Made by a program: the position numbers and the translations under genes. 64,000 nt of DNA from Micromussa lordhowensis (taxonomy: Eukaryota; Cnidaria; Anthozoa; Scleractinia; Lobophylliidae). Under the pieces are notes generated by a model. It searched no databases. It had not been told where the DNA came from and saw nothing but the letters and a program-made list of their open reading frames with translations. Where the stretch lies: NCBI GenBank assembly GCA_964020085.1, contig OZ026607.1:21827106-21891105 (forward strand), read 5' to 3'. Below, in pieces: positions 7,028 to 60,204 of this stretch. Positions within the stretch are counted from its first letter, which is position 1. Every line of letters begins with the position of its first letter.

Positions 7028-9251
7028 ATGCGATTCACTGCCATTCTGAACAGCATGAGTCTTGCGCGTAAAATCTTATTCTTTCTTATTACAGTCTTTT
7101 GGATAGGAACGACGAAAATTTACAGCCAAACGATCAACTCATCGTTGGCTTGTAACAGCGCAAAAAACTGCCAAACATGTGTGCGGGATTTGTCTTGCTT
7201 CTGGTGCGAAACGCGGCTGTCATGTGAAGTCTACGGCACGAAAAGCAAAGACGAACAGACCAAAGGTTGCGGAGAATGGCGATGGAAGAGCTGCGAGAAA
7301 GCAAATGTATCTGCACCACTGATAGCTATCATAAGTGGCTGCTCTTCGGTGGCGTTGATTTGTGGTGAGTGTAGTATTGCTCCGTTTTCTCTTTAGTTCG
7401 ATTGAGAAGATATGTCAAACACTCAAGACAGTGTTTGACCACATTTCCAAACACCACGAAGTTCGTCAAAAATTATTCGCTGCGTCAACACTCTTCTGGG
7501 TGTTTGGAAATGTGGTCAAGCACGGTCTTTGGTGTTTAAAATGTTACTAAAATCAAACTGAACGCAAGACCGGCACTACTGCAAACGAGGTGTTTTATCG
7601 AGGCCTATATTTCGGCTTACAACATAGGTATTGCAGTCAGTTTTGATTATACACTTCAAGTGAAGTCTGACACGAGCATACATCCTACAGAAAGAAATCC
7701 GACCAATTTATCAGTACGTTTTGTGTTCTTTTACATTGTGAGGATCTCTGTATTCAGACGCATGAAAAAACTGACGTCAATTTGGTAAACGGTGTGGAAT
7801 TATAATCGTTGGATGTTGTCCTTCAGTAGCATTTTAAAACTGGTAAAGGTTCAATTGAGGCCTTACACTACTGTAAAATTGATATCGTTTAAAAATCCAA
7901 GCTTTCGCCGATCTTGGATTTTTAAACGATTTTAATATCAATTTTATAGTAGTGTAAGGCCTCAATTGAACCTTTACCAGGTGTGGAATTAATTTATTAC
8001 GTTTCCCAGTCAAAAGAGCAGGGGGGGGGGGGGGAAGAGGAAAAAAGGGGGCACCCCTCGACCGTACTTGAAATCTGCCCACGCGTACGTAGGAAAGGTA
8101 GTAAGAGAATTAATCCTTAATTCCTGTCTAAGGATCAAAATCATATTTCTTCTTCCAAAACCAATCAATTTTAACAAAGGCAGGTGATGAGAATGAAGTT
8201 TTGATTAATTCCTGAGAGCTTTTCCTGTCTTATCTGCTGAGATATCAGTGGTGAGGGTGGGTGGGTGGGGGGGAGGTTGTGCAACGAACTTGAAAACATA
8301 GGAACATGAATGATCATCGCAGTACGTAATTTTGTACACAACTGAAGCAGCTATAAGAACAAAGTTGAAAAAATCCATGCTTGAATGGGATTCGAACCCA
8401 TGACCTCTGCAATAACGGTGTGAGGCTCTTCCAAATGAGCTATCAAGCCAACTGGGAGCTGGTCACATCGTGAGTTCGTAATATATCCATACATGGTAAA
8501 AAATGTAAGTGAATCTGTGAACGATTTTCAATTTGAACTGCAGTGAAGTTGTAATGACATGAATGTTCATCGCAGTGATGTACACAGCTTAAGCAGATGA
8601 AAAATAAGTTCTGAAAAAATTCCGGCTTGGAAACTTGAAAACATCGCCTATTTTTACAGATCTGATGTCTGTGATGGTGCTTCTCTTTAAGACCTGGCCA
8701 AACGAACACGCAAGTGATTGCAAGTGCACGCAAGTCACCATAAAGCAGACATATCCTGTATTCCATTGGTTAATAATAGGTTAATGGACGTCACTCAACT
8801 TGCTTTGACTTGGGTTGGGAGGCCAAACTGTGAAAAACTTGCGTCGACTTGCATGCAAATTTGATGTCGACCAAAGTGACCGCAAGTTATCGAAAGCCAA
8901 CCCAAGTGCACGCAAGAGTCGCACGTAGACCGCCTTCTTGCGAGTCCGTTTGGCCAGGGTTCGACCCTTGATTTTGCGTTCTCGAAAATTGATGTTACAC
9001 TGCAAAATGAATATATGTTATTTGTCTCTTTTCCAGTTCTGCTGGTGCTCGTTTGCATCAAAAGGGATCTCTGGAAACGAATGATAAGCTCGCGCTTTTA
9101 CGACAGATGGGATCAAGAAGGATTATTCGAGCAGGACGAACGATTTAACAGAAAAAGGAAACACAGTAAAACACAGAGCAGTAAGGCGCAAAAGTTCGCA
9201 GAGAAATATCAACTTAATGACCCATCTATGGCATTTTTGTACTCGCCGTAA
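7028..9251 (+). CDS. PTTG1IP-like type I membrane protein with PSI domain
   Basis: There are two exons, 7028-7364 and 9037-9251, joined in phase 1 (TGTG then GTGAGT; TTTTCCAG then TTCTG), giving 183 aa. Residues 1-33 are a signal peptide (Met10 is an alternative start). Residues 42-89 are a PSI domain with eight cysteines in the usual spacing (CQTCVRDLSCFWC core). Residues about 97-120 are one transmembrane helix split by the intron, followed by a basic, charged cytosolic tail. Length, order and tail match PTTG1IP (pituitary tumour-transforming 1 interacting protein, about 180 aa in mammals). In mammals that protein binds PTTG1/securin and traffics between membrane and nucleus. The partner in this organism is unknown. 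AATAAA lies at 9429-9434. It is convergent with LARP7. Confidence 0.85.
7413..7541. repeat. Fold-back repeat in the PTTG1IP-like intron
   Basis: Arms of about 43 bp share the core GACCACATTTCCAAACACC and its reverse complement around a short loop. A diverged relative of the same family lies at 19761-19885, so this is a dispersed MITE-type repeat. Confidence 0.6.
7840..7980. repeat. Long near-perfect palindrome (hairpin, about 60-bp arms)
   Basis: The left arm begins CTGGTAAAGGTTCAATTGAG and the right arm ends with its exact complement at 7980. The arms differ by only a few bases over about 60 bp, around the loop CTTTCGCCGAT. The intron strand would fold into a long hairpin. Confidence 0.85.
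8304..8449 (-). mobile_element. SINE family A, tRNA-headed
   Basis: On the minus strand, 8449-8379 is a tRNA-like head with an A-box-like segment (TAGCTCATTTGGAAGAGC) and a B box (GGTTCGAATCC). A body and tail follow, ending near GATGATCATTCATG. The same tail is seen at 22950 and 23250. The arms do not make a clean functional anticodon stem, so it is read as a SINE and not a tRNA gene. Confidence 0.75.
8552..8632 (-). mobile_element. SINE family A, headless tail copy
   Basis: The minus strand carries the family-A body (ATTTTTTCAGAACTTATTTT, GCTTAAG) and tail (CACTGCGATGAACATTCATG) without the tRNA-like head. It is a 5'-truncated copy next to the one at 8304-8449. Confidence 0.6.
8693..8959. 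mobile_element. MITE with CCTGGCCAAACG terminal inverted repeats
   Basis: Terminal repeats CCTGGCCAAACGaACaCGCAAG and its near complement at 8936-8959 enclose about 220 bp with repeated GCAAGT motifs and no coding capacity. It lies in the last part of the PTTG1IP-like intron. Confidence 0.55.
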
Positions 9252-10872: not shown

Positions 10873-13800
10873 TCATGTCTGTAATTCGCCTTCACTGTCG
10901 TCAAAACGAATATGACTTTGTCGTTGTACTTGTAGGGCTTCGGCCTTTCTTGCAACCTAGAAATTAACGCATAAAGCACTCAGGGTAAAATTGTTCGATA
11001 ACTTATTAAAACTAATTCTGGATAAAAAGTTTACCGAGGATTGAATGGTCCAGTTTCGAGGCAACTAAGACCGCTGAATAAAAGGACTGAAGACTCACCT
11101 GTACAGAGTTAAGCTCAATCTGTAGTAAAATATTCATGAAAAAGGTAGGTAAAGTCTGCATACGAGCCAAGTGGCTCATCAGGCCAGAGCTTATCCTGGT
11201 TTCAGTAGCATGAAGCGACTAGGAGTATTTCTACTCCACCCTGGATGGGAAGCTAGTCCATCGCAAGGTTACCCCCAGCATTCAATCGCCGGTACCCATT
11301 TGTACACCTGGGTGGAGAGAGGCACAGTGAAAGTAGGGTGCTTTGCCCAAGAACACATTTAATGTCCCCGGCCAGGGCTCGACACCAGGACCGCTCGATC
11401 TGGAGACGAGCGCACTAATCACCAGGCCACCGCGCCTCTCTATTCACGAAATACTTCCAGTATTGAAGTGAATCAATGCACTGAGTTGTGGAAAATGGCA
11501 AACGATTAAGCGTAGGTTTGTACCTTTTCAGTTCCTCTTTTCTTCCCTCTCTTAGCACTATATCTTGTTACGCGATCGGCATTTATCTTCTCCCAGTACG
11601 CTTTCTCATCTTCCTCTACAAATGAAAAGAAATAAATCACGTCAAATGTGTCGCTTTCAGTGAAACGCTGCGCGTTTTCGATCGTATCACAAGGACGATT
11701 AACGCATCGCATCGACGAAAACGGATTTATGTAAACAGGGCGTTAACTTAGTGGGGTACCCCCAAGAAAATTAGATGGGTGGGTGCGGCCCTCTTACGAA
11801 AACCCTTGCCCTATTTTAAACGCCAAATCTGTGATTTCCCTATCTTATTTCTGACCTGACCAGAAGTTCGATACCCTATTGAAGACTTAACCCTTTAATC
11901 AATACCCTGCTTCAAGCCTGCCTTATAATTAGTTCCCTAGTTATCAAAGATATCAAAGACAATGTAAAGCGCTTTTGTTGATAGTCTTTTCGATAACGAT
12001 AATCAAAGTAGCTCCTTTTTTAAAAAACTTCCTGACCAAAATGGCTTAAAACCATACCCATTGGAGCCGCACGTACCTGTATAGCCCTGATAATGGAGCT
12101 ACCCCAACCTCCCGGGGGGGCGCTACACTCATTTGGGCCTCGTTCACACCAATGCAGTTTCGTTGGAACACGTATACTTGATGCAGTCGTCTGCGCTAAT
12201 ACGATAGAAAACGAAACGCACACGTGAAAGCGCTGTCCAGAGTGCAGATCACTAAAAACGTAGTCCTATCACATTGGAGTGAAGAGCGAAAACCTTTTCT
12301 GATTTGCGTATATGCGCTTTTGAGCGTTTGAGCCGACCTCGTTCCCAGGACAGGGACCTCTCTCTTCCTCGAGGAAGAGAGAGGACCCTGGGAACGAGTG
12401 GACGGACGGGGAAAACGCTGCAAAAACGTTAGTGCAGACGCAAATCTTTTGATGCTTTTTTCGGTGCAAATACTTATCACCGGAATACGCCAGTTGTATC
12501 ACCGCATGGTCTGAAACGGGGCAACGAAACGCCCAAGCTAAAAAGGTCTGCTAGCTTGCCGGTACCCCCGAGAGGTTTAAAATTCAAGTATATCGATTTT
12601 TAATTCACTCTTTATGTTGACAGTCATTCAAAGAACTTGATTGGCACGAAAGCGCAAGGATTTGCAGTAACAAAACAATGATAAGATATATAGTTTAACA
12701 CTGACCTGTTAGTTGGTGGAGTTTTAATTCATCGTTTGTCGATGACATTGTTTCAAACACCGCACTACATTTTTCTGCAGTATGGAAGCGAACGTAACCC
12801 TGCAGAGAAGACCAAAAATAAAACAAAGTTAAATTAGTTTTTCCTTTAAACCAAAGAGACTATCCGCAAGCAAAGGCTTGTATATTGAGTGTGAAACAAG
12901 ACAAACGCCAGTCTGACTTTTCGGGTGAATAAGTGCCGCTTTCGGGAAATCCACGAAAGTAACCGAACAGCCTCCGACTCTTATTGTCCAATCAGGAGAA
13001 TTGTTGTCGGTTCCGTTTGTCGTCATATGCTTGCGTCATCAGTAAACGTTGAAATTTCGCGCCTTTTTTCACGCTTGCTCACGCTGGCAGCGGGCAGGCG
13101 GCAACAACTCGTATTCAAAGAGAAGCTACCTGCCATCCGAAATGTTTCTTTTACAAACTGCATTGTTGATTATACGTACTTAAATTTAATACAGTTAAGA
13201 CGTTTTCCTCACCTCAACACTGCCCTCAGCCAGATCCAAATAAGCTACTGGTGCATAGGAAGAAAACTTGTCCTACAAGTAGAAAAGAATCAAATTAACA
13301 AACACACAAAGGCAAAAATTGGAAACTTCAAACACTGACTCTTATTTTGACCAAAATTATAAAAGCATGCTAACATACCCAATTGAGACTATAACCAAAA
13401 CCATTACTTCCAATCGTTTTTACATGCATCTCTAAATCCAGGCTCCGGTTGTTTGAAAAGTGGATAACGCTAACGTGGTTTGTTTGGTCAACACGTATGA
13501 ACTGGATAGAGATTTATCCGTTGGATAGCTTTATCCAGCCTTCGAACGAGCGAAGCCTGTACTCCACGACTCCTTCCTAAAACTTACCTAGCTAGGCAAG
13601 TGCGTGATAATAATTTCACCCGAGACAGTCCACCATAGTAGTATATGTTCAGCATTTTAAGCCTTGTTGTGGTCTTCCCCTGTCTTCCCTGTCTTCCTGC
13701 ATACTAATAAAGTGTCTTCCTGCATACTAATGTGGATTTCCTACATACTAATTTGGATTAGGTTTACTAATGAGCGTCGCTCTAGTACAATACAAACAAT

Positions 13801-16800
13801 AAGGTTGCCCAGACTTGCCCGCTACTAGTGAACCCTGATTGGCTCATGAGAAATCTGTTATGTGTTCAAATTATAAGCGCGTTCTCCGAGACTTTCAGTT
13901 TATTCTTGTCGGGTAAATAATATTTTTGAGCGGATAGCTTCCAAACATGCAAGTCGAAACGTTAATCGTGAAGATGGCTTGCTTGAGCGTAAAAGACATC
14001 GAATCTATCATGCTTTTATCTGACTTTGGCGACGAGCGAGAATTAATTCTTAGCTAACTGCTCGAGGTTTCCGCTCCGTTAGTCACGCACTGAATCCACT
14101 TTCGCCCTAAATTTGCATACAAACTCCAACGGAAAAGCCCATGGGACAGCTCTACCATTGAAATGACAACAATAGAAGTTCGGAGGACTAATTAATTTAA
14201 ACACGCGACAATAAATTGTTTTCTTAAGAAACTTTATTGCTTGTTAATAGTGAATACACACAGATTTGAAATGAATACACCAAAATTAATACAACTACAA
14301 CATGTTTATGAGTAAAGTATCAGGAAATCATTCGCAATCGCCGCGCTAAAACAACACACACGTCAATAAACTTTCAAACAACTTTATTTAAATAATAACG
14401 ATATAACAAAATCAGTTTTTATCGTCACTCGCGGGAAAATATAACCTCACTTTCGATGTTTTCATGTTTTCGTGACTCACTGCACCGCAGTCATTACAAC
14501 GAGCAAAGGCTTCTTTTATATGTTCGCTGTCAAGTGGAATATCGTAACCACAAATGGGACAAATAGTAAAGTTAGCGTGCCAAAAGCATCTGGGACACTT
14601 TACCACCGCAGTTACGGACACATTCCAGTTTTGACAATGGTGACATGGTTTCGAGGACTCTTTTTGAATGATTCCCTCTTGGTCAGACTCGCTATCACTT
14701 TCTGCATCATTGCTTTCAGATTGACTTTCCTCTTCCGCACTACTGTCGCTACTATCGCTACGGTCACTGTCATCATCACCTTCCCCTTCGTTCTCTCTAT
14801 TAACCTTTTCTTTTTCTAGTAAATCGCTCAAAATTTTCTTGTTTTTTATTAAATGCTTGTCAACTCCTAACTCTGCCAGACCATCCAGGAAAGTATTAAG
14901 CGCTCTGGGTTTGATTACCTCCTCGTTATGAGGGAGCAAAACGTATTCCACCAACTCAGCGATGTTTGTTACGGGAATTATGTGATTTTTTCGAAGTAAT
15001 TGCCCACGTGGAGTCCAAAACAGAATATCCTTGGAAGCAGCCATACTGTGTAGCAAGTCAGAAGCGCGTTTTCTGGAAACAGTTTGTGAGAGATTCTCTA
15101 ACACATCTTTAATTCGTGGTTCCTTGTCATCGCTCTGCTCATCTTCAGAGACATCTATCGCGCCTGCTTCCTCAAAAGGCTCCATTTCACCTTCTCCAAT
15201 TTCTTCATCATCCCAATGTACCTTTCGCTTCATGCCCGAACCGCACTCGTCAAAAGAAGATATGAAATGATTGATCTCGTTAAGGGTTATTGCATTTATA
15301 GCAGAAGAAATCCCAAGCTACTTATAACCGGGGGGCAACAAGTCTTGGATAAATCCACCACCCTCTTGCACAAGAATCTGCTTTTTCTTCTTGTAGGGAA
15401 CATTCGGTTCTGCGAGACTAATTAGAACATCCTTATATGGATGCAATTTCTGCCTGTTTTCTTCGGGAAAGGGGATGTATCCCTTGAGCACATTGTATAA
15501 AACTTGAACTAATGCGTGAACTTGTTGTGGAGTGGCAGTCCCTAATAGAAACTCGCATTGATGGGAAGGGCAATGGGCTAACAGTTGAAGAAAACCACGG
15601 TTGTTCTTTACTACTCGAGACATAATTGCAGACTAAACTAGAGACCCACGTTAACGGTTTTTAAAGAATTGTGCTGGTTGTAGTTTAATTGTCTTAATGA
15701 AACAATAGAATTGTGGAGGAGGAGGGAAAACAATAGAATTGAGGAGGAGGAGGGAAAACAATAGAATTGAGGAGGAGGAGGGAAAACAATAGAATTGAGG
15801 AGGAGGAGGGAAAACAATAGAATTGAGGAGGAAGAGGGAAAACAATAGAATTGAGGAGGAGGAGGGAAAACAATAGAATTGAGGAGGAGGAGGGAAAATA
15901 ATAGAATTGAGGAGGAGGAGGAGGAGGAGGAGGAGGGGGAGGAGGAGGAGGAGGGAAAACAATAGAACAATAGAATTGAGGAGGAGGAGGAGGAGGAGGA
16001 GGAGGGGGAGGAGGAGGAGGAGGGAAAACAATAGAATTGAGGAGGAGGGGGAGGAGGAGGAGGAGGGAAAACAATAGAATTGAGGAGGAGGAGGAGGAGG
16101 GAAAACAATAGAATTGAGGAGGAGGAGGAGGAGGAGGAGGAGGAGGAGGAGGAGGAGGAGGGAAAACAATAGAATTGAGGAGGAGGAGGAGGAGGAGGAG
16201 GAGGGAAAACAATAGAATTGAGGAGGAGGAGGAGGAGGAGGAGGAGGAGGAGGAGGAGGAAAACAATATAATTGTGGTGGTTGAAGCCTATATAAATGTG
16301 GAACATTATACACATTTTGTCAGTTCGCCCTAGGCTTTGAGTGAGTTGACATGAGTTGGTCCTGTCCTGTTTGTCAAAAGGATTTTTCTAGAAAGGATAA
16401 TTTGCAAAGACATATGAACAGCAAACACAGTAATTCCCATTTTACTCCAGTCATACCGATGTCTCAAGAAAAGTGTCAGCGGTTTCAGTTTGAACATCCG
16501 TTCACTTGCATGGTGGCCGGGATGACTGGATCAGGCAAGACGATCTGGGTCCAATCGCTGTTAAGACAGGCTTACAGAATGATTAATCTTCCTCCCGAAA
16601 GAATAGTGTGGTGTTACTCACAGTGGCAGCCCGCCTATATGGAAATGCTAGTCGCCATACCAAATATAGAATTTGTCAAGGGAATCCCGGAATCTCTGGA
16701 AAATGATTCCTATGTAGATGTCAACATACGCAACCTGATTGTCTTTGACGACCAAATGACTGAAGCCGGAAAAGATAATCGGATCGTGAACCTGTTTACA

Positions 16801-19800
16801 AAAGGATCGCATCACCGAAATCTGAGCGTTATTTACATTCTGCAAAATCTGTTTCATCAAGGCAAAGGCAACCGAAGCATCAGCTTAAACAGTCATTACT
16901 TGGTGTTGTTCAAAAATCCACGTGATAAACTACAAGTTTTGACCCTAGCCAAACAAATGTATCCCGGGCGTACTGATTTTTTCCTAAAACAACATGAAGA
17001 AGCTGTAAGAAGGCCCTATGGTTATCTTTTGATCGATTTGAAAACTACCACTCGAGATGACTGTAGGCTGAGAACAAACGTGCTCCCTGGAGAAGAAAAG
17101 TTTAATCAAGTAGAGAAAGAAGAAAATATCCCTCAGGAGTTACTAAGATATCTGAAACAGCAAACTCTGATGGTGCCCCCGCCAATTTCGGAGATGCAAC
17201 GCATTCAGAATAATATGGATAATCTCCTGTATCGTACAAACCTTGGAGAGGACCAAAAAGCGAAGCAGTACATGCAGTTGCAAAACAAGTTTTTAAACTA
17301 TAAACACCAGCTCAAATCGTTAATACCTGAAGCAACAATACCCACCCAAACCCAAGAGCCAAATCAAATTTCTACGAATGTACTGACAGGCGACGTACCA
17401 ACTGCGCCAAACCCCGTTCAAAAACCACCAGAAATCATACCAGCGACTCCAGTTCAAGCACCAACCCAAGTGACAGCCCCACAAGCCTTATCTACCATGG
17501 CAACCTCTTCCTCTATCTCATCTCCCACCCTCCCTCCCTCCATTTTGACTCCCCCTCCCACAGTCGAAACGTTGTCACCAGTTAGAAAGCGTATAACGCC
17601 CCCAGTCTGTCAAATTTGTAAATTACCTGGACTATGAACCGAAGAAAGCCTCTAGAGGATCTCGACGTTTACACAGGACTTCGCCTTACAAGTACTCTCA
17701 ATACGATGAAGACGATTGATTGCATCCTAATTTCCTGATACTTTACTCATAAACATGTTGTAGTTGTATTAATTTTGGTGTATTCATTTCAAATCTGTGT
17801 GTATTCACTATTAACAAGCAATAAAGTTTCTTAAGAAAACAATTTATTGTCGCGTGTTTAAATTAATTAGTCCTCCGAACTTCTATTGTTGTCATTTCAA
17901 TGGTAGAGCTGTCCCATGGGCTTTTCCGTTGGAGTTTGTATGCAAATTTAGGGCGAAAGTGGATTCAGTGCGTGACTAACGGAGCGGAAACCTCGAGCAG
18001 TTAGCTAAGAATTAATTCTCGCTCGTCGCCAAAGTCAGATAAAAGCATGATAGATTCGATGTCTTTTACGCTCAAGCAAGCCATCTTCACGATTAACGTT
18101 TCGACTTGCATGTTTGGAAGCTATCCGCTCAAAAATATTATTTACCCGACAAGAATAAACTGAAAGTCTCGGAGAACGCGCTTATAATTTGAACACATAA
18201 CAGATTTCTCATGAGCCAATCAGGGTTCACTAGTAGCGGGCAAGTCTGGGCAACCTTATTGTTTGTATTGTACTAGAGCGACGCTCATTAGTAAACCTAA
18301 TCCAAATTAGTATGTAGGAAATCCACATTAGTATGCAGGAAGACACTTTATTAGTATGCAGGAAGACAGGGAAGACAGGGAAAGACCACAACTCGCTAAC
18401 GGTTCTACAATCGTTTGTTTTAACTGTTCGTATTTGGGGCAACCCCAAGTTTCTAAATCGAGACAAGGAATGTTCAGTTTGTTTAACAAGTCTTTTTCAA
18501 CATGACCTCCTTTGAAAGCCACCACAGTTCTTTCCTCCGTCTTGTATTGGTTGTACAATCGCAGTAAGACAATATCTACTTCATCATGCTCATATGCTCT
18601 CTCTTGGTAACGGGGCTGATAAGTGAGTCCGTGTATGTTATGTTTTGCAAAGTTCACCGTCTTTTTATCCTTGTGAGACAAGTTTTTAAGTGCTGCTGGC
18701 TGGAAGAAAGCATGGCGGTCAAAGTGTTCATCCCAAGAGTAATACCCCATTTCACGCACTTGAAATTTCTTTTGCACAAAGAATCCCTCTAAGTCTATGA
18801 CGAGACATACGCTGTTCTTGATTCTCAAATCCGCCGCAGCATCAGTTTCTTCAAACGCACTAATTGTGTGCTCATTAGCTTCGTCCACGGTTAACATAGG
18901 TTTAGATGTAGATTCGACTTGCATGTTTGTTCCGCTCAAAAATATTATTTACTCGACAAGAATAAAATGCTAAACGGAGAACGCACTTTTATTTTGAATA
19001 GATTATAGATTCTACATGAGCCAATCAGGGTTCACTAGTAGCGGGCAAGCCCAGGCAAGCTTATTGTTTGAATTGTATTAGAGCGACGCTTATTAGTAAA
19101 CCTAATCCAAATTAGTATGTAGGAAATCCACATTAGTATGCAGGAAGACACTTTATTAGTATGCAGGAAGACAGGGAAGACAGGGGAAGACCACAACAAG
19201 GCTTAAAATGCTGAACATATACTACTCACCATGTTCTTTACATGGTCATGTGTTTTCATTAAGTTTATACTGAGGAAATAATAAACTCAACAATTTTTGG
19301 ATTTCTGATCTTAAAGATGATTTCCAGTACGTACTGCGCAGTCTCAACACCTTAATGTTTACAAACATTGTAAGTTCCCACTCGATGGAATGCGAATCGA
19401 TGTTATTCGTTACCAACCACATACATTATCTTGGAGGCAATTCAAATTCTTTTTCCAGCAGCTTCATTGATTTTCACAGCTGCGAAGTTGTTTCATCAAG
19501 TGATAAGAGAAAGAACAAAGCATGTAGCTTAGACCGCTTTGCATCCATAATGGCGATGGTTTGAAACTTTGAATTTACTTCATGCAAGTAGTTGCGAAAT
19601 ATTTATTTGTGATGTCTTACATGAAACAAAACAAAAGACGCAAACAAAACCTCGAGAGTGCGCAGTACGGACTGGAAATCATCTTTAAGTGGCATAGATT
19701 TTGACGATTTTTTTCTCGGTTTTCTCTTCAGTTTTGGCCACGAACTCGCGATTGAAAAGGTATATCAAACATTTAATCACATTTCCTAACACTTCGAAGT

Positions 19801-22800: not shown

Positions 22801-23156
22801 GTCTGCCTGTCTGTCTGTCTGTCTCTTTGTTAGTCTGTCTGTCTGTCTTTCCATCTGTCTGTCTGCCTGTCTGCCTGTCTGTTCGAATCCTGTTGAATCC
22901 CTGATTTTTTTTTCAGACTTCTTCTTTCCAATTGCTTAAATTGGAAAATTCACTGCGATGATCATTCTTCACTTTCACCTATAACCGCAGTTCAAATATA
23001 TGAATTATTTCATAAACGAATAAACAAGAAATAAAGTTGCTTTCATATATACTTCACATCATTTCACTCCTCTTGGGAAGATGTCAACTCAACAAATTTA
23101 CCTTGCTCCCAATGTGTGGCTTCATAGCTCAGTTGGTAGAGCATCGCACTGGTATC

Positions 23157-23188
<32 letters not shown>

Positions 23189-32021: not shown

Positions 32022-34242
32022 ATGGCTGGTGGAAGGTACGACCATTACGACTACCTGTACAAGATTGTTTTAATTGGAGACTCTGGTGTGGGAAAATCTT
32101 CACTTCTATCTCGTTTCACGCGAAATGAATTCGACCTCGAGTCGAAGTCCACCATAGGTGTCGAATTTGCTACAAGAAGCATTCAAGTGGATGGGAAAGT
32201 CATCAAAGCACAGGTATTTCTGGCTTCATTTCCAACAGATTTTCATTATGTGATTTAGTTTGTCTACGTAGTTAAGTCGAGGCTTCGTTTCACCGGGAAA
32301 TCCATTTATTAGCATAACTTCTGCACGCTGTAAATAATGTTGCATTCTAGGACTCTCTTTTAAAAATTTTCTCTGCGCTGTACGATGTAAACTTGCACGC
32401 AAATTCAGTTGAAAATTTTTCTCATTTGTGTCCCTGCTGGATCTCCTAGAGAGTTAAACCCAAGTAAGACTGAAAAGATGTATTGTTTTTCTTTTGTTCT
32501 TCAACAAATTATGCAAAGACTGTTCTGTTCCTTAAAGTACAATTCCTAAATTATTTATTTATATCGGATATCGATATTCAAGGGCTTGTTTTCCCAAAGT
32601 TGACAATGTTTTTGTGCAGTGATTGTAATTTTTTTCTATTAAAGCAAATCTAATGGACAAAAATTACTTTGTAGCCAAATTTAATTAAAAATGGCTTGTT
32701 ATCAAAAGTCAAATTTCCTTGAATTGTGACTTGTCTCTTGAGGGTTAAAGGAAAATGATGATTATTACTTCACATCTCACATGCATATTTTAAACTTTCT
32801 TTTTCCCTGTTTGGTGGATAAAAATATCTATATTTAGAAGTCTGGGTCATCAAAGTGCTTGTATAAATATATTTCATAACAAGAGTCTCTATTTCAATAT
32901 GGATAATTTTAAATATTACTCTGCGTTGTGTGGTTGAAGTAATGTATCAAAGCTGGACTGGAAGTTCAAGGGGTGGGTGAAGGATTCAAACTGAAAACCT
33001 TCCGAGGGGGGAGGGGGGAGGGGGAGAGGTTCTGGAGATATTCTAGTATGGCACATATATTACATGCAAAACAAAATAAGAAAGAATAAAGTACTTTTCC
33101 AAGATAGTTAAATTTTAAAGCAGTTGAAATGCAAGTTACATCACCTACAGTGGAAATTGCGAAAAGTCTCCCTGGTTTGCACAAGTTCACGGCTGATTGA
33201 AGCAGAGTGAAAACTGCAAACAAAACCAATTTCTGAGGCAAGCTGTAACTGTGATGTACAAGTCAAAGAGTCATAAATTAGTATACAATAGATTTCATAC
33301 TAGCATGATTGGTTAATTTTAAAATTACATTTATAATAATAATTTTTATATTCAACCAAAAGTACTTTAATTAGTAGTTTGAATTTCCTGAAAAAGTTCT
33401 CCTAAACACTTTACTCACCCATTTGGCAAGTGAAGTATCACTATACTTCCCAACTCAAAGACATTTTCTGCTTTGAGGAGAATGTGTCACACATTGTGAG
33501 TAAAAACTCACTGACTCCTTAGAGAAACAACAACTTGAAGTTTTCACTCGCATGTGATCAGGTTGTGCACCTTGAAACCGCAGGAAATTTGTTGTAGTGC
33601 ATAGTGCTAGACTGTTGCGCAATTACTTGGACACTCAGCTGGATAGGGAGATTGATTTGCATTAAATTTTCATCCAATGTTGTGGCATTATTCCTCTAAT
33701 TATTTTCCTCATTAATATTGATATAATTTAATAAATTGACATGTTTGACTGATGACAGTGTGTTTACTTTCCACAAGGTTTGGGACACAGCTGGGCAGGA
33801 GCGTTACCGTGCGATTACAAGCGCGTATTACAGGGGAGCTGTGGGTGCCATTCTTGTTTATGATTTATCCAAACAGAAGACATTTGAGAATGTGGAGAGA
33901 TGGCTAATGGAAGTGCGTGAGCATGCTGAATCTTCTATTGTCACAATGCTTGTTGGAAATAAATGTGATTTGAAACATCTACGAGCAGTCCCTATAGAAG
34001 ATGCCAAGAAATACGCAAATGATTCCGGATTGTCATTCATTGAGGCTTCAGCACTGGATTCTACAAATGTAGAGGAAGCATTTACACAAACTATTACAAA
34101 AGTGCATGAAGTACAGCTTACAAAAATGCGGAAGGAACTTGATATGCCCGGGCAAAACAATGGTTCTTCCAGTGGTAAAGGAAAAGTAGTTGAAGTGGAT
34201 GAAACATCACAGCCGGAGAGAAGTTGTTGTGTTATTCTGTAA
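32022..34242 (+). CDS. RAB11: Rab11 family small GTPase, two exons
   Basis: The exons are 32022-32213 and 33778-34242, phase 0 (CAG then GTATTT; CCACAAG then GTTTGG), giving 218 aa (animal Rab11A/B about 216-218). P-loop GDSGVGKSS at 19-27, switch [13 protein letters not shown], switch [21 protein letters not shown], guanine-binding NKCD and ASALD, C-terminal CCVIL for double geranylgeranylation. The effector region is as in Rab11, which directs recycling-endosome and trans-Golgi traffic with FIP and exocyst partners. Met at 32022 starts the family-typical N-terminus just before [11 protein letters not shown]. The hypervariable tail is diverged, so A or B cannot be assigned. Poly(A)-like AATAAA occurs near 35186. 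Confidence 0.96.

Positions 34243-37968: not shown

Positions 37969-60204
<22,236 letters not shown>

What the first reader, a model, noticed from the sequence alone, without database searches (positions are those of the whole stretch)
13631..19232. Mini-Polinton-like element with 6-bp duplication, no polymerase or integrase
Exact CACCAT duplications and matching AGTAGTATATG ends bound a 5,590-bp element that encodes a packaging-type ATPase and virion-like small proteins but no replication or integration enzymes. This is seen in sequence; the 6-bp duplication and TIRs are established Polinton/Maverick hallmarks. I infer a satellite-like element that may be mobilised and perhaps packaged in trans by a larger relative. 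An element keeping packaging rather than replication genes would be an unusual parasitic strategy.
Basis: partly seen in the sequence, partly recalled or inferred. Interest (0 to 1): 0.88.

Follow-up and report, generated by a model that had tools for sequence, protein, structure and literature searches.

The report
Polinton satellite carrying a packaging motor
This 5.6-kb mobile element, from a probably coral genome, belongs to a multi-copy family of short Polinton relatives that carry a predicted DNA-packaging motor but in which no gene for copying or inserting themselves was found, and that likely borrow those enzymes from full-length Polintons with matching ends in the same genome.

Summary
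In detail: a 5590-bp element (13637-19226) flanked by CACCAT, with ~322-bp terminal inverted repeats (91%). The window copy reads as a recombinant: a ~4.8-kb mini-element whose right tip was replaced, at an 8-bp microhomology, by the terminus of an exonuclease-bearing relative. It is not a one-off. In the window's own genome (581 Mb), 8 of 10 such elements with both ends read have perfect 6-bp duplications, and a cassette of zinc-ribbon protein, pX-like protein and zinc-finger/A32-type ATPase recurs, with pN/pS about 0.2 between subtypes (weak within one subtype). Two full-length ~14.8-kb Polintons (integrase, capsid-like and polymerase-like genes, 6-bp duplications) were read in the same genome; one mini-element shares its terminal 80 bp exactly with one of them. 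Their ATPase is only ~54% identical to the mini type, and no mini-type ATPase was found on a capsid- or polymerase-bearing element (capped lists). Best reading: a long-lived Polinton satellite family, likely replicated and integrated in trans. That its own ATPase steers its DNA into helper particles is inferred, not tested.

The parts
13631..13636 (.). left target-site duplication CACCAT
13637..13958 (+). left outer terminal inverted repeat, AGTAGT start
   Evidence: 90.7% to 18913-19226 over 323 columns
13666..14328 (+). left arm of the inner 663-bp inverted repeat; together with the 29-bp tip it is the mini-element's left repeat
   Evidence: 662 of 663 identical to the reverse complement of 17730-18392
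14412..15233 (-). zinc-ribbon protein, 273 aa
   Evidence: 567 relatives; residues 57-171 resemble the C-terminal half of the 314-aa protein of a full-length Polinton (25%, E 2e-7)
15318..15623 (-). pX-like protein, 101 aa (name recalled)
   Evidence: 38.6% to the corresponding protein of a full-length Polinton, E 2e-24
15700..16275 (.). GGA-rich minisatellite between the divergent genes
16351..17637 (+). C2H2 zinc finger + A32-type packaging ATPase, 428 aa; its frame departs near the C-terminus from that of the 455-aa relatives
   Evidence: Pfam; alignment; 53.6% to the full-length Polinton ATPase over residues 46-256
17730..18392 (-). right repeat of the mini-element, lacking its last 29 bp
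18385..18392 (.). recombination joint: 8-bp microhomology ACCACAAC between the repeat and the exonuclease gene
   Evidence: comparison with L031 and with the left repeat
18391..18924 (-). exonuclease-like gene without its conserved C-terminal segment (the open frame runs on to 18328 into the repeat)
   Evidence: 109 relatives; full-length relatives; DEDD exonuclease fold of relative P0121
18913..19226 (-). right outer terminal inverted repeat, exonuclease type
19227..19232 (.). right target-site duplication CACCAT

Best explanation
The element is a member of a multi-copy, non-autonomous Polinton-derived family that is likely replicated and integrated in trans by full-length Polintons with matching ends in the same genome. 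Shown: the family has AGTAGT ends, long inverted repeats and, in most elements with both ends read, 6-bp duplications; it keeps an ATPase, a pX-like and a zinc-ribbon gene that are homologous to genes of full-length Polintons and conserved as proteins between subtypes; no integrase, major capsid, protease or polymerase gene of the full-length type was found in the mini-element stretches read. Shown for this copy: an exonuclease-less mini-element is joined at ACCACAAC to an exonuclease-bearing right terminus, and one duplication flanks the joined whole. Inferred: the AGT repeats serve protein-primed jump-back replication by a helper polymerase; a helper integrase makes the 6-bp duplication; the join arose between co-replicating extrachromosomal molecules before insertion. 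Inferred and untested: the satellite's own ATPase and core-like proteins favour loading of its DNA into particles built from helper capsid proteins, which would explain why packaging genes rather than replication genes are kept.
For: 6-bp duplications in 8 of 10 elements with both ends read, and in both full-length Polintons read. The same cassette recurs in the stretches listed. In the genome-wide ATPase search 29 of 102 rows start at residue 1, reach residue 414 or beyond and have no stop (98 of 1286 candidates scored). Pooled pN/pS 0.25 for 13 ATPase copies, 0.18-0.22 between subtypes. Full-length Polintons with matching ends; a mini-element (L011) shares the terminal 80 bp exactly with one. 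0 of 22 further stretches hold helper-type integrase, major capsid, protease or polymerase matches. 0 of 97 mini-type ATPase loci lie within 20 kb of 75 scored polymerase loci, and 1 within 20 kb of 84 capsid loci, 0.56 expected. Recombination among minis: the window joint and chimera L024.
Against: No mobilisation or packaging was observed. Genome lists are capped (75 of 952 polymerase, 98 of 1286 ATPase, 95 of 341 capsid candidates scored). Two of 10 elements (L010, L015) lack a duplication. Within subtype 1 the codon-position signal is weak: variable sites 16/14/22 for the ATPase, 8/8/9 for zinc-ribbon, 3/0/5 for pX, and pairs of the window's ATPase with its closest copies give 0.23-0.75, so constraint may belong to an unseen parent. 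The window's own ATPase is frame-shifted. Names for capsid and polymerase genes of the full-length elements are recalled and had no Pfam support.
Confidence: 0.72

Rival explanations
1. The minis are ordinary internal-deletion derivatives of a full-length Polinton with the same ATPase, present elsewhere or recently lost; the genes they keep are leftovers amplified by hitch-hiking, with no role for the satellite.
For: A penton-gene remnant beside the core gene in 5 stretches and a core gene in 6 show descent from a larger element; protein-level constraint between subtypes could have been inherited from full-length parents; the signal within subtype 1 is weak.
Against: No such parent was found near 97 mini-type ATPase loci; the same cassette is kept in at least two subtypes with about 40% synonymous difference in the ATPase; full-length ATPases read here are about 54% identical.
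Confidence: 0.22
2. The doubled right terminus of the window copy is an assembly artefact; the real element is a plain 4.8-kb mini-element or a different one.
For: A near-perfect 663-bp inverted repeat is a hard case for assembly (general knowledge); the inner repeat lacks its tip.
Against: The joint has an 8-bp microhomology between two sequences found elsewhere; the exonuclease side matches L031 at 98.9% over 654 bp; one duplication bounds the whole. Reads were not available.
Confidence: 0.07
3. The system is segmented: full-length elements lack a packaging ATPase and depend on the minis, so that the two together form one divided genome.
For: The mini-type ATPase was not found on capsid-bearing elements.
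Against: Both full-length elements read have their own ATPase gene, one with Adeno_IVa2 above its cut-off.
Confidence: 0.03

Closest known systems
Polintons/Mavericks (Polintoviricetes)
   Same: AGT-repeat ends, terminal inverted repeats, 6-bp duplications, packaging-type ATPase and a pX-like protein homologous to those of full-length elements in the same genome
   Different: about a third of the length; no polymerase, integrase, major capsid or protease gene found; ATPase with an added N-terminal zinc finger and a C-terminal part resembling half of another Polinton protein
Non-autonomous DNA transposons such as MITEs, and non-autonomous Polintons in repeat libraries (recalled)
   Same: keep the ends and likely depend on enzymes in trans
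   Different: these keep protein-coding packaging-type genes with protein-level conservation between subtypes
Phage satellites that redirect packaging, such as P4 and PICIs (recalled)
   Same: predicted use of helper particles with an own packaging function
   Different: eukaryotic host, transposon-like insertion, A32-type ATPase; particle use untested here
Virophages (Maveriviricetes)
   Same: parasites in the same broad virus group, with a packaging ATPase
   Different: virophages encode their own capsid proteins (PMC11071308, passages); none was found in these minis

Membership tests
Polinton/Maverick (autonomous) | terminal inverted repeats with AGT-repeat ends | tested here: met
   AGTAGT at both ends; the (AGT)2//(ACT)2 motif is reported for vertebrate Mavericks (PMC8097293, passages)
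Polinton/Maverick (autonomous) | 6-bp target-site duplication | tested here: met
   CACCAT; 8 of 10 elements with both ends read
Polinton/Maverick (autonomous) | packaging ATPase | tested here: met
   Pox_A32 over its cut-off; 53.6% to the ATPase of a full-length element
Polinton/Maverick (autonomous) | protein-primed family B polymerase | tested here: not met
   no match in the window element with helper-type genes at E 1e-5
Polinton/Maverick (autonomous) | retroviral-type integrase | tested here: not met
   no match in the window element, while helper L022 has rve + chromo
Polinton/Maverick (autonomous) | major and minor capsid proteins | tested here: not met
   no match in the window element; some other minis keep a core gene and a penton remnant
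Polinton/Maverick (autonomous) | Ulp1-type cysteine protease | tested here: not met
   no match to the protease-like open frame of L033
Non-autonomous Polinton derivative (satellite) | ends shared with an autonomous element in the same genome | tested here: met
   window right repeat 92.5% over 295 columns to full-length L021; L011 identical over 80 bp to L022/L033
Non-autonomous Polinton derivative (satellite) | multi-copy with own duplications | tested here: met
Non-autonomous Polinton derivative (satellite) | moved by helper enzymes in trans | not testable with these tools
   needs activity data
Virophage | own major capsid protein | tested here: not met
   no match to the capsid-like protein of L022
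Maelstrom-type (MAEL) domain, for the exonuclease-like gene | MAEL chain among the fold matches | tested here: inconclusive
   the rows shown are mainly DEDD exonucleases such as REXO2, RNase AS, a TREX1 homologue and ISG20L2; the Cys/His pattern suggested MAEL from recall only

The most novel reading that the evidence does not exclude
A packaging-hijack satellite of an animal Polinton: a long-lived parasitic lineage that discarded capsid, polymerase and integrase but evolved its own zinc-finger-tipped packaging motor and core proteins to load its 4-6-kb genome into the particles of full-length Polintons, an animal counterpart of phage satellites, whose ends still recombine with other elements of the replicating pool.
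Probability: 0.35. Interest if true: 0.88.

Novelty: new variant of a known kind. Interest (0 to 1): 0.74.

Why it matters
Particles of Mavericks had not been observed according to the abstract of PMC8097293, and whether such elements behave as viruses in animals is open. A satellite that keeps a packaging motor conserved as a protein while giving up replication and insertion would be indirect evidence that DNA packaging by Polintons matters in animals, and it predicts a checkable product: 4-6-kb linear satellite DNA with AGTAGT ends inside particles. It would extend the satellite-helper theme from phages and giant viruses to animal transposons.

Tried and rejected
IMG/VR scans with the ATPase, an ATPase alignment, pX, the exonuclease, the P0182 tail and the capsid-like protein found no relative; GTDB contigs with the ATPase alignment, none. 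The Oculina exonuclease protein P0182 looked fused to the start of a Polinton polymerase (recalled); its tail does not match the polymerase of the full-length element here, so the idea is open and unused. The 12.8-kb and 15.8-kb repeat pairs on C10 and C1 looked like full-length parents; they are mini-elements with other DNA nested in them. Shared contig lengths between ATPase and zinc-ribbon hits (3 of 116 lengths; none between ATPase and exonuclease) are weak and not used. The fold of the capsid-like protein failed (pLDDT 31.9); no solved structure matched it or the polymerase piece by sequence. No PDB chain matched the ATPase or exonuclease profiles by sequence. Maelstrom does not appear among the 50 rows shown, which excludes nothing. 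A segmented-genome reading is disfavoured because both full-length elements read carry an ATPase. The one capsid/mini-ATPase neighbour pair (C140, 13.4 kb apart) is probably not one element, judging by the layout of L022; it was not fetched. Not done: the empty-site check; the genome search with the integrase and with the helper ATPase (not completed). Papers: searches returned none; others (45 papers, 20 listed; 43, 20 listed) gave listings only, apart from passages of PMC4028283, PMC6431247, PMC11071308 and PMC8097293. Repeat libraries and subscription journals could not be searched.
Full report
1. The observation. CACCAT stands on both sides of a 5590-bp element (13637-19226) with AGTAGTATATG ends. 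Its outer repeats are about 322 bp and 91% identical. Inside lies a second inverted repeat of 663 bp, 13666-14328 against 17730-18392, 662 of 663 identical. Genes: on the minus strand a zinc-ribbon protein (14412-15233) and a 101-aa pX-like protein (15318-15623; name recalled); a GGA-rich minisatellite; on the plus strand a C2H2-finger/A32-type ATPase (16351-17637; Pox_A32 26.3 bits, cut-off 22.8); on the minus strand a truncated exonuclease-like gene (18391-18924). Against relatives of 455 aa (P0001, 96% identical) the window's ATPase changes frame near the C-terminus.

2. The host. The window lies in a held genome of 580.8 Mb and 1383 contigs, at C13:21827106-21891105. Named relatives of its proteins are from the corals Oculina and Porites, so the host is probably a coral; the genome itself is unnamed.

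3. The family. A 381-bp end probe gave 49 matches with 40 of 466 first-look candidates scored. The ATPase gave 102 rows with 98 of 1286 candidates scored; 29 of the 102 rows begin at residue 1, reach residue 414 or beyond and have no stop. Twenty stretches were fetched, later more. The cassette zinc-ribbon, pX-like, ATPase recurs between long inverted repeats; cassette elements with both ends located measure 4.2-5.8 kb. Ten elements had both ends read (window, L009-L016, L032): exact 6-bp duplications are present in eight and absent in L010 and L015. One of the eight, L016, is a 2.5-kb relative without the cassette. Ends of L031 and of the elements with nested DNA were not checked for duplications.

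4. The window copy is a recombinant. In a clean mini such as L010 the ATPase is followed closely by the right repeat. In the window the right repeat (17730-18392) stops 29 bp short of its tip and passes, through ACCACAAC, which both parents share, into an exonuclease gene and a second terminus; that part matches L031 at 98.9% over 654 bp. One CACCAT pair bounds the whole, so the join probably preceded insertion (inference). L031 carries exonuclease genes at both ends, L032 only C-terminal parts of them, the window's left repeat none: a series of loss. Of 97 mini-type ATPase loci, 13 have an exonuclease match within 8 kb.

6. Full-length Polintons in the same genome. L022 with L033 (C6, 14,891 bp, CATGAA) and L021 with L039 (C5, about 14.8 kb, CCCGGA) have matching ends. 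They encode an rve integrase with chromodomain (tested on L022), penton-like, core-like, capsid-like and protease-like proteins, a 314-aa protein, a pX-like protein, a 213-aa ATPase (Adeno_IVa2 22.1 bits, cut-off 21, in L033) and polymerase-like open frames. The names penton, core, capsid, protease and polymerase are recalled from sequence resemblance; Pfam gave no support for the capsid-like or polymerase-like pieces. Linkage does support the capsid family: 25 of 38 distant relatives of the capsid-like protein lie within 15 kb of a PF03175 polymerase, 0.15 expected; of 46 close relatives only 1 does. Nine capsid-like copies are at least 98% identical over all 444 residues and open.

7. Relation of the two. 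The mini ATPase is 53.6% identical to the full-length ATPase over residues 46-256. Its residues 250-323 resemble the N-terminal half of the 314-aa protein (27%, E 7e-6) and the zinc-ribbon protein resembles its C-terminal half (25%, E 2e-7); pX is 38.6% identical. So the mini cassette looks like an old, rearranged set of Polinton genes. Six stretches (L015, L020, L024, L027, L031, L032) keep a core gene, and five of them (not L032) a C-terminal remnant of the penton-like gene beside it: a scar of a larger ancestor. L024 pairs a subtype-1 ATPase with subtype-2 zinc-ribbon and pX genes, so minis recombine. L011 and the L022/L033 element share the terminal 80 bp exactly at both ends.

8. Absence of replication genes. 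None of 22 stretches searched has integrase, major capsid, protease or polymerase matches of the full-length type at E 1e-5; the window element and L016 have none either. Of 97 mini-type ATPase loci, 0 lie within 20 kb of 75 scored polymerase loci (0.50 expected) and 1 within 20 kb of 84 capsid loci (0.56 expected). These lists are capped, so absence is not proven.

9. Selection. Pooled pN/pS is 0.25 for 13 ATPase copies; 12 of 13 are free of stops to residue 417. Between subtypes the ratio is 0.18-0.22 for the ATPase, 0.11-0.14 for pX (window pairs) and 0.18-0.20 for the two computable zinc-ribbon pairs; for pX and zinc-ribbon the silent sites are near saturation, so these are rough. Within subtype 1 the signal is weak (variable sites by codon position 16/14/22 in nine ATPase copies, 8/8/9 and 3/0/5 in ten zinc-ribbon and pX copies), as copies drifting after insertion would show; constraint acted on the replicating lineage or on an unseen parent.

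10. Mechanism. Passages of PMC8097293 tie the terminal short repeats of Mavericks to the jump-back step of protein-primed replication. The minis keep these repeats. The most economical reading is replication and insertion by helper enzymes. Why keep an ATPase? Loading into helper-derived particles by the satellite's own motor is the best guess; it is untested.

11. Novelty. Phrase searches for non-autonomous or mini-Polintons returned no paper in the held library; repeat libraries and subscription journals were not searchable. I rate it a new variant of a known kind.

Noticed in passing
L033:2749-7461 and L039:2782-7503: In both full-length Polintons the polymerase-like frame is split at the same place, with a 24-base gap between two open pieces; cause unknown.
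   Followed up: no
L031, L032 and exonuclease pairs (e.g. C6:12628009/12633430, C8:13909087/13914045): Other mini-elements carry exonuclease genes or fragments in both inverted repeats.
   Followed up: partly
L022:597-1229 and window 18871-18924: The first 18 codons (MQVESTSKPMLTV...) are shared by the exonuclease gene and an unrelated first gene of the full-length Polinton: the terminal repeat reaches into both genes.
   Followed up: partly
L029/L030 (C10) and L037/L038 (C1): Mini-elements with other DNA of some 8-11 kb nested in them, including a 574-aa open frame, present twice in the C1 case.
   Followed up: no
L016 and L025: A 2.5-kb element with the same ends but other open frames, and a related inverted-repeat unit beside a similar end.
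   Followed up: no
genome G000, e.g. C13:21405334-21416313, about 0.4 Mb from the window: Further, more distant Polinton families with PF03175 polymerase and a capsid-like protein at about 30-39% identity.
   Followed up: partly
window 8377-8449 (-), 23118-23190 (+), 33727-34242 (+), 47990-48350: Two tRNA genes, an open frame resembling a Rab GTPase (label recalled) and a long microsatellite in the flanking DNA.
   Followed up: no
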